Below, piece after piece: positions 1,967 to 62,361 of a stretch of 64,000 nt of DNA; the stretch's first letter is position 1; each line of letters starts with the position of its first letter. Source of the DNA: Limnoperna fortunei (taxonomy: Eukaryota > Mollusca > Bivalvia > Mytilida > Modiolidae); the NCBI GenBank assembly GCA_944474755.1, contig OX104120.1, forward strand, positions 43,194,067-43,258,066. Reading direction: 5' to 3'. Under the pieces are notes generated by a model. That model was not told the origin of the DNA and ran no database searches. It worked only from the letters and a program-made list of their open reading frames with translations. A program made the position numbers and the translations under genes.

Positions 1967-2167
1967 CTCAACGAAAATAGAATTGCCATGTATTTCTGCA
2001 GACAGAGTAAGCAATCCATCATTCATCAGGTTATGTGATCCCGATTCTTGGTTCATTTTGTAGTGTAGCTGCCCGTATTGGTGATACTTTGGATAATAAT
2101 TGATAGACGCTGATTTGATATGATCAGCAATCTCTGTATTTACTATTGCAACATTGTAAAATCGTAT
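1967..2167 (-). CDS. Exon 58: end of the LamG domain and beginning of an unidentified region
   Basis: 201 bp, phase 0/0. Begins IRFYNVAIVNTEIADHIKSA, closing the LamG domain (DEiR.yn.al...Ei), then continues with QYGQLHYKMNQESGSHNLMN, which I do not recognise. The donor GTATAAATA is open, so the gene runs past the left edge of the window or into the repeats at 1-1.9 kb. Confidence 0.78.

Positions 2168-62361: not shown

What the first reader, a model, noticed from the sequence alone, without database searches (positions are those of the whole stretch)
1967..62361. A chimeric giant thrombospondin: LRR array, fibro-slime, cadherin, discoidin, EGF, TSP3, TSP_C and LamG in one chain
Seen: 58 exons in uninterrupted phase, about 2,968 codons, with recognisable hallmarks of each module in the order given. 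Known: classical thrombospondins have an N-terminal domain, coiled coil, sometimes TSP1, then EGF-TSP3-TSP_C; large invertebrate 'mega-thrombospondins' have other N-terminal regions. Inference: this is a mega-thrombospondin-like matrix or adhesion protein whose architecture may be undescribed.
Basis: partly seen in the sequence, partly recalled or inferred. Interest (0 to 1): 0.9.

Follow-up and report, generated by a model that had tools for sequence, protein, structure and literature searches.

The report
Mussel mega-thrombospondin, one of eight
This stretch of a mussel chromosome holds 58 of the 59 predicted exons of one gene for a mega-thrombospondin, a known kind of giant animal protein that is predicted to be secreted and likely ties cells to their surrounding matrix; its layout was described in 2019, but at least eight loci with the family's hallmark domains sit on this one chromosome.

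Summary
A minus-strand model has 58 exons in the window (62361 to 1242) plus a leader exon 8 kb upstream of the first: 3,002 codons, no internal stop. It aligns end to end with an NCBI-predicted Mytilus edulis protein of 2,998 aa (67.4% identity, 14 gap positions), so it reads as one gene, not a fusion of two. The domain order (leader, LRR, FN3-like, fibro-slime, cadherin, discoidin, Cys-rich, EGF, TSP3, TSP_C, second ConA/LamG) is that of mega-thrombospondins, described in 2019 with three bivalve genera (PMC6526912). "Architecture may be undescribed" is therefore not supported. What seems new is modest. (1) Fibro-slime is no chimera: 33 of 33 mega-TSPs scanned, sponge to amphioxus, match it (two of the scores seen lie below the curated cut-off); the 2019 paper names only a PA14 domain in Hydra. 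(2) At least eight loci lie on this chromosome (that paper: one, sometimes two per species); the next begins about 3 kb downstream, head to tail. (3) An 83-85-residue Cys-rich insert in the FN3-like loop is shared only with the M. edulis orthologue (1 of 62). Likely role (inferred): secreted calcium-loaded adaptor. New member of a known kind.

The parts
1242..62361 (-). 58 of 59 predicted coding exons of a mega-thrombospondin gene (3,002 aa in all; the first coding exon lies beyond the right edge of the window at 70485-70599)
   Evidence: no internal stop, all 58 acceptors AG and 57 internal donors GT, 67.4% identity over 3,007 columns to P0001 (M. edulis)
62208..62361 (-). N-terminal Cys-rich cap exon (LRRNT-like, label from reading the sequence)
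   Evidence: 52.8% to P0001 residues 38-84
39026..58704 (-). Leucine-rich repeat array, about 880 residues, 22 exons; 23 of the 24 introns before residue 1031 are phase 2
   Evidence: (LRR_8 2.9e-92, 12 stretches)
37935..38122 (-). C-terminal LRR cap (LRRCT-like, label from reading the sequence)
35290..37109 (-). FN3-like domain (phase 1-1 exon pair) interrupted by an 83-85-residue Cys-rich insert
   Evidence: fn3 E 0.03, below cut-off; flanks pLDDT about 90, residues 24-106 of the exon under 50; mostly FN3 chains at the top, best E 0.8; insert in 1 of 62 homologues
31580..34618 (-). Fibro-slime domain (TIGR02148)
   Evidence: (45.9 bits, cut-off 45)
27887..31811 (-). Cadherin region: one Pfam match around the DVNDN motif; a second cadherin-like unit by reading only
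   Evidence: 25.3 bits, below cut-off 28.8; 32.0 bits in the cut segment
26195..26813 (-). Discoidin (F5/8 type C) domain, phase 1-1 exon pair
   Evidence: (2.7e-22)
23384..25736 (-). Growth-factor-receptor / ephrin-receptor-like Cys-rich region
   Evidence: Ephrin_rec_like 3.2e-10
16902..23697 (-). EGF-like domains; the last runs on into the first type 3 repeat
   Evidence: EGF_3 2.2e-14, EGF_CA 4.4e-12
9027..17006 (-). Thrombospondin type 3 repeats
   Evidence: TSP_3 2.6e-46, 6 stretches; COMP 3fby 1.4e-121 over EGF-TSP3-TSP_C
5226..9254 (-). TSP_C (L-type lectin-like) domain; GEN in place of the DDD calcium motif
   Evidence: (1.4e-66)
1967..5450 (-). Second ConA/LamG-like domain (Laminin_G_3)
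   Evidence: 2.3e-19
1242..1289 (-). Terminal coding exon with stop; a near copy lies at about 213-166

Best explanation
The window carries 58 of the 59 predicted exons of one gene model for a 3,002-residue mega-thrombospondin, which is predicted to be secreted and likely works as a calcium-loaded single-chain adaptor that ties cell-surface receptors to matrix proteins and glycans. Shown from sequence: the single open chain, the domain order, its pairing with a M. edulis protein, and its place among at least eight linked loci of the family. Predicted: secretion (hydrophobic leader, judged by hydropathy only) and calcium loading of the type 3 repeats (by homology to COMP and TSP-2). Inferred: the long LRR solenoid offers a protein-binding surface; fibro-slime, discoidin and LamG domains are glycan or matrix binding heads; cadherin, FN3-like and Cys-rich modules act as spacers; the calcium-wired TSP3/TSP_C base docks to integrin-type receptors. 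The canonical TSP route of matrix retention by the DDD motif is probably not used.
For: End-to-end colinearity with P0001, 67.4% identity, 14 gap positions in 3,007 columns. Exon-chain score 398 against at most 56.6 in 25 shuffles. Domain matches. COMP, TSP-2 and TSP-1 structures match the C-terminal region. Tree: window gene with P0001, 100/100. GEN at the DDD site; DDD in 0 of the 59 mega-TSPs that have residues there (of 62: P0011, P0014, P0018 do not reach the site), whereas the TSP on C6 of the same genome has DDD. In Hydra, siRNA against mega-TSP blocked head regeneration (PMC6526912, abstract and Discussion part 1), which fits a matrix role.
Against: No transcript, protein or binding data. 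P0001 is itself a prediction, so shared annotation logic could hide an error. FN3 (E 0.03) and cadherin (25.3 bits in the long chain, cut-off 28.8) are weak by profile. The most hydrophobic 19-residue window is not the leader (1.52 at residue 4) but residues 89-107 in the LRR region (1.67), and no secretion, membrane or coiled-coil predictor was run. KGD sits at the TSP-1 RGD position, but M. edulis has IGD there, so an integrin motif at that spot is not conserved. The plus strand also scores above shuffles (122.8), so the chain score alone is not proof.
Confidence: 0.82

Rival explanations
1. Two or more separate genes (an LRR protein and a thrombospondin) lie in tandem and were joined only on paper.
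For: No RNA was available. Some introns are long (5.4 kb between 22427 and 17006, 4.8 kb between 14055 and 9254) and hold foldback elements.
Against: One predicted M. edulis protein spans the whole chain. Paralogues F and A in the same genome show the same order across tens of kb. Reading frame and intron phase continue across every junction. Long homologues with the same Pfam set occur from cnidarians to amphioxus.
Confidence: 0.04
2. It is a secreted pattern-recognition protein of a locally expanded immune family rather than a structural matrix protein.
For: At least eight linked loci, four of them (B, C, D, H) a young clade in the TSP_C tree. LRR solenoid plus discoidin, fibro-slime and LamG heads. 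Lineage-specific inserts in the FN3-like loop (Cys-rich here, Thr-rich in P0011).
Against: The LRR array (67% to the orthologue) is no faster than the whole chain (67.4%); the N-terminal cap (54%), the FN3-like domain with its insert (58%) and LamG (57%) are faster. The 2019 paper found mostly one, sometimes two copies per species. Hydra data point to tissue regeneration. No selection test could be run.
Confidence: 0.2
3. It is a decayed or non-functional paralogue.
For: It is one of many copies, and another TSP_C fragment in the genome (C10:39642552-39642686) has three stops.
Against: 3,002 codons without an internal stop, intact splice dinucleotides at every junction in the window, and 71-81% identity to P0001 across the Cys-rich, EGF, TSP3 and TSP_C regions.
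Confidence: 0.03

Closest known systems
Mega-thrombospondins (mega-TSP; CgMT of oyster, VlMT1/VlMT2 of a freshwater mussel, HmMT of Hydra; Shoemark et al. 2019, PMC6526912)
   Same: Hydrophobic leader, about 900-1,000 residues of LRR, central cadherin, FN3-like, discoidin and GFR-Cys domains, EGF-TSP3-TSP_C, a second ConA-like domain, no DDD motif
   Different: Fibro-slime is not named in the paper (a PA14 domain is, in Hydra only); at least eight loci on one chromosome rather than one or two per species; Cys-rich FN3-loop insert shared only with M. edulis P0001
Mytilus edulis predicted protein P0001 (2,998 aa, named 'uncharacterized protein' by NCBI)
   Same: Colinear over the whole length, 67.4% identity, same insert (57.6%); best read as the orthologue (tree 100/100)
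   Different: Sequence divergence; KGD here, IGD there, at the TSP-1 RGD site
Canonical thrombospondins (COMP/TSP-5, TSP-1, TSP-2)
   Same: EGF, TSP3 and TSP_C region alignable from end to end with 3fby and 1yo8
   Different: LRR and central region in place of the TSP N-terminal region; a second ConA-like domain; DDD replaced by GEN
Fibro-slime proteins of Fibrobacter (bacterial surface proteins implicated in cellulose attachment; search listing only)
   Same: TIGR02148 profile match
   Different: Kingdom and architecture; no evidence of cellulose binding here

Membership tests
Mega-thrombospondin | N-terminal secretory signal peptide | tested here: inconclusive
   First coding exon MKRIVVFVNIFSLISS... 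found outside the window in the right phase; hydropathy 1.52 at residue 4, no dedicated predictor
Mega-thrombospondin | About 1,000 residues of tandem LRRs | tested here: met
   LRR_8 2.9e-92 with 12 stretches; about 880 residues plus caps
Mega-thrombospondin | At least one central cadherin domain | tested here: met
   Cadherin 1.7e-07, 32.0 bits over cut-off in the cut segment; 2.1e-05, below cut-off, in the longer chain
Mega-thrombospondin | EGF - TSP type 3 - TSP_C C-terminal region | tested here: met
Mega-thrombospondin | Second ConA/LamG/MAM-like domain after TSP_C | tested here: met
   Laminin_G_3 2.3e-19
Mega-thrombospondin | Bilaterian additions: discoidin and GFR-Cys-rich | tested here: met
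   F5_F8 2.7e-22, Ephrin_rec_like 3.2e-10
Mega-thrombospondin | Bilaterian addition: FN3 | tested here: inconclusive
   fn3 E 0.03, below cut-off; mostly FN3 chains top the fold list but best E 0.8; only 3 of 16 homologues match fn3
Mega-thrombospondin | No coiled coil | not tested
   No coiled-coil predictor was run; no coiled-coil or TSP N-terminal family is listed
Mega-thrombospondin | DDD motif absent from TSP_C | tested here: met
   GEN at the site
Mega-thrombospondin | Groups with mega-TSPs apart from canonical TSPs in a tree | tested here: met
   with P0001 inside the bivalve mega-TSPs; only one non-mega TSP (C6, same genome) served as outgroup
Canonical thrombospondin | DDD calcium motif in TSP_C | tested here: not met
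   GEN; the TSP on C6 has DDD
[quoted passage not shown]
   Two ConA-like domains, 3,002 aa
Fibro-slime domain proteins (TIGR02148) | Profile score over the curated cut-off of 45 bits | tested here: met
   45.9 bits, barely over; P0001 38.7 and P0121 36.3 are below it

The most novel reading that the evidence does not exclude
Mussels carry a previously unreported chromosome-linked family of giant thrombospondins (at least eight loci here, five of one sub-lineage) built on an ancient fibro-slime core that the founding description of the family missed, and the copies have diversified by inserting new Cys-rich or Thr-rich modules into one FN3 loop, turning an old low-copy matrix protein into a set of paralogue-specific extracellular recognition molecules.
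Probability: 0.25. Interest if true: 0.6.

Novelty: new member of a known kind. Interest (0 to 1): 0.36.

Why it matters
Mega-TSPs are among the oldest animal matrix proteins, yet only one paper in the held library uses the term. A complete exon model, a newly noted shared fibro-slime module (33 of 33 scanned) and a linked set of at least eight loci give that family a testable ligand-binding hypothesis and a lineage in which to ask what duplication is for. The architecture itself is not a surprise.

Tried and rejected
Undescribed architecture: rejected on PMC6526912. Two-gene model: rejected on colinearity. Exons that the unconstrained gene finder placed in 57-63 kb, 21.4-18.2 kb, 12.2 kb, 7.6 kb and 1.4-0.2 kb were dropped: several sit in repeats or foldback elements and P0001 has no counterpart for them. 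An acceptor at 32356 was replaced by 32329 because it gave nine residues absent from P0001 and F. Three trial boundaries were wrong and gave a broken frame; one search corrects them. Pfam PA14: no match to the fibro-slime segment even at E 10, so identity with Hydra's PA14 domain remains open. The fold of the FN3-loop insert: not predictable (pLDDT under 50). P0143 matched the insert at E 0.92 over 32 residues; taken as chance. Dropped rows: P0016 and P0019 from all trees; P0020 (long branch) from the tree; the TSP_C trees used 14 homologues; P0011, P0014, P0016 (partial) were left out of the 16-member scans; P0019 (bacterial TSP3 repeats) out of the 62-protein set. Of the 43 new proteins, 17 were scanned for fibro-slime, so 33 of the 62 in all. 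Species not determined; a mussel outside the M. edulis group is inferred from 67% orthologue identity. A search for papers with Mytilus, thrombospondin, leucine-rich repeat and tandem duplication gave none; six papers hold thrombospondin, bivalve and gene family expansion (listing only, not read).

Full report
Observation. The minus strand of the window encodes a long, phase-consistent exon chain. A gene finder with generic codon and splice tables and no homology input already chains most of it. Its score, 398.0, compares with 122.8 on the plus strand, 83.7 and 98.4 on reversed sequence, a mean of 35.2 (maximum 56.6) in 25 dinucleotide shuffles of the minus strand and at most 40.2 in 10 of the plus strand. 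The plus-strand figure is above shuffles, so the score alone is not proof; homology is. Curating the LRR exons by their shared phase and then by the M. edulis protein P0001 gives 58 exons in the window, 62361 to 1242, with AG at all 58 acceptors and GT at all 57 internal donors. One further exon lies at C10:43264665-43264551 (window coordinate 70599-70485). It begins with ATG and a hydrophobic stretch and ends in the phase that the first window exon needs. The protein is 3,002 residues with one terminal stop and aligns with P0001 (2,998 residues) from first to last residue at 67.4% identity with 14 gap positions.

Domains. The profile scans used the earlier 55-exon model (2,909 codons) cut in three. 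Pfam: LRR_8 2.9e-92; F5_F8_type_C 2.7e-22; EGF_3 and EGF_CA; Ephrin_rec_like 3.2e-10; Cadherin 2.1e-05 (25.3 bits, below cut-off in the long chain; 32.0 bits, above it, in the cut segment); TSP_3 2.6e-46; TSP_C 1.4e-66; Laminin_G_3 2.3e-19. NCBIfam: fibro-slime 45.9 bits, cut-off 45. FN3 is weak: E 0.03 and below cut-off, with mostly FN3 chains at the top of the fold list at E 0.8 or worse and none at E 0.001. LRR introns are uniform: 23 of the 24 introns before residue 1031 are phase 2. The FN3-like and discoidin units are phase 1-1 exon pairs, the usual signature of exon shuffling (general knowledge). The most hydrophobic 19-residue window is at residues 89-107 (1.67), ahead of the leader (1.52 at residue 4); no secretion or membrane predictor was run.

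Known kind. Shoemark et al. 2019 (PMC6526912; abstract, passages, sections 5, 6, 8 and 12 part 1 seen; no supplement) define mega-TSPs by a signal peptide, about 1,000 residues of LRR, a central region with cadherin, the canonical TSP C-terminal region and a second ConA-like domain, with FN3, discoidin and GFR-Cys-rich additions typical in bilaterians. Their Table 1 lists three bivalve genera. Searches (7,989 candidates scored, 124 hits, 120 listed; 57 hits at E up to 1e-250) returned long homologues; I took 62 of them as mega-TSPs. They include bivalves, a gastropod, a nemertean, an annelid, echinoderms, hemichordates, amphioxus, cnidarians and a sponge. The window protein pairs with P0001 at 100/100 support. 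In the held library only that one paper uses 'mega-thrombospondin' or 'mega-TSP'.

Fibro-slime is shared, not chimeric. Of 16 and 17 mega-TSPs scanned, 33 of 33 match TIGR02148 at E up to 0.01, the sponge scpid2291 included; the two whose scores are shown (P0001 38.7, P0121 36.3 bits) lie below the curated cut-off of 45. The 2019 paper names a PA14 domain in Hydra only (section 6) and does not mention fibro-slime: no paper in the library holds both 'fibro-slime' and 'thrombospondin'. The 18 'fibro-slime' papers concern bacteria or gut communities by their listings. The two labels may describe one fold (recalled, not tested); Pfam PA14 did not match the segment.

A linked family. TSP_C exons occur at one place on C6 and at nine on C10 (31 of 31 candidates scored). 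The C6 gene keeps the DDD motif. On C10, central-domain exons (fibro-slime through Cys-rich) and TSP_C exons lie on the same strand and in the same order at seven loci: A 8.40 Mb, B 39.58-39.62, C 39.73-39.76, D 39.78-39.81, F 43.05-43.19, the window gene G, and H 55.84-55.88 (56 of 229 candidates scored, so its hits are a lower bound). An eighth, E at 41.56-41.59 Mb, has TSP_C and one Cys-rich match and is 75.9% identical in TSP_C to M. californianus P0008. A ninth place, 39.64 Mb, is a fragment with three stops. LRR-to-TSP models were built only for G, F and A, those of F and A approximate; the LRR query for the others did not complete, so full length is not shown for B, C, D, E and H. The TSP_C tree puts G with P0001 (98/96), F with P0003 (99/96), E with P0008 (98/96) and A, B, C, D, H with P0002 (95/95), with B, C, D and H a younger clade (96/94). 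F's predicted start lies about 3.0 kb downstream of G's predicted stop, head to tail. M. edulis (P0001, P0003) and M. californianus (P0002, P0008) also have at least two each. The 2019 paper reports one mega-TSP in most species and two in some.

Window-specific features. The FN3-like loop holds an 83-85-residue Cys-rich insert found in 1 of 62 homologues, the M. edulis orthologue (E 3e-27; P0143 at E 0.92 taken as chance); P0011 has a Thr-rich stretch at the same place. AlphaFold2 gives confident flanks (about 90) and an unpredicted insert. At the TSP-1 DDD site the residues are GEN; none of the 59 mega-TSPs with residues there has DDD (of 62, P0011, P0014 and P0018 do not reach the site). At the TSP-1 RGD site the window has KGD while M. 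edulis has IGD, so this motif is not conserved. Identity to P0001 by region on the final model: N-terminal cap 54, LRR 67, LRRCT 70, FN3 with insert 58, fibro-slime 72, cadherin 65, linker 76, discoidin 69, GFR-Cys 74, EGF 81, TSP3 73, TSP_C 71, LamG 57 percent.

Mechanism. Best supported is a secreted, calcium-loaded single-chain adaptor: type 3 repeats and TSP_C as in COMP and TSP-2, with LRR, fibro-slime, discoidin and LamG as binding surfaces. The binding roles are inferred from domain families; only a Hydra knock-down (paper) speaks to function. A recognition role for the expanded set is possible, but the LRR does not evolve faster than the chain as a whole, which counts against it.

Verdict. 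Confirmed observation, correct family, architecture already described: a new member of a known kind with a locally expanded family and one newly noted shared domain.

Noticed in passing
window 9788-14000: Foldback-type element in the intron between exons 14055 and 9254: arms of about 1.3 kb of a roughly 200-bp satellite, inverted, 85-95% alike
   Followed up: partly
window 17081-21602: Second foldback-type element in the intron between exons 22427 and 17006: inverted arms of about 530 bp, 93% alike, with 41/81-bp sub-repeats
   Followed up: partly
window 162-260 and about 1238-1336; 249-688 and about 1463-1893: The terminal coding exon and its flank are duplicated downstream (93% and 86% alike), giving a second possible last exon at about 213-166
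   Followed up: partly
window 54368-55999: Tandem duplication with a 510-bp period, 97% alike, in an LRR intron
   Followed up: no
window 7762-8946: Tandem pair of about 700 bp, 83% alike, in a TSP_C intron
   Followed up: no
G000:C10:39642552-39642686: TSP_C fragment with three in-frame stops near the 39.6-39.8 Mb cluster, probably a decayed copy
   Followed up: no
P0011 (Mytilus galloprovincialis), FN3-like loop: Thr/Ser-rich repeat stretch at the position of the window's Cys-rich insert, suggesting an insertion-prone loop
   Followed up: partly
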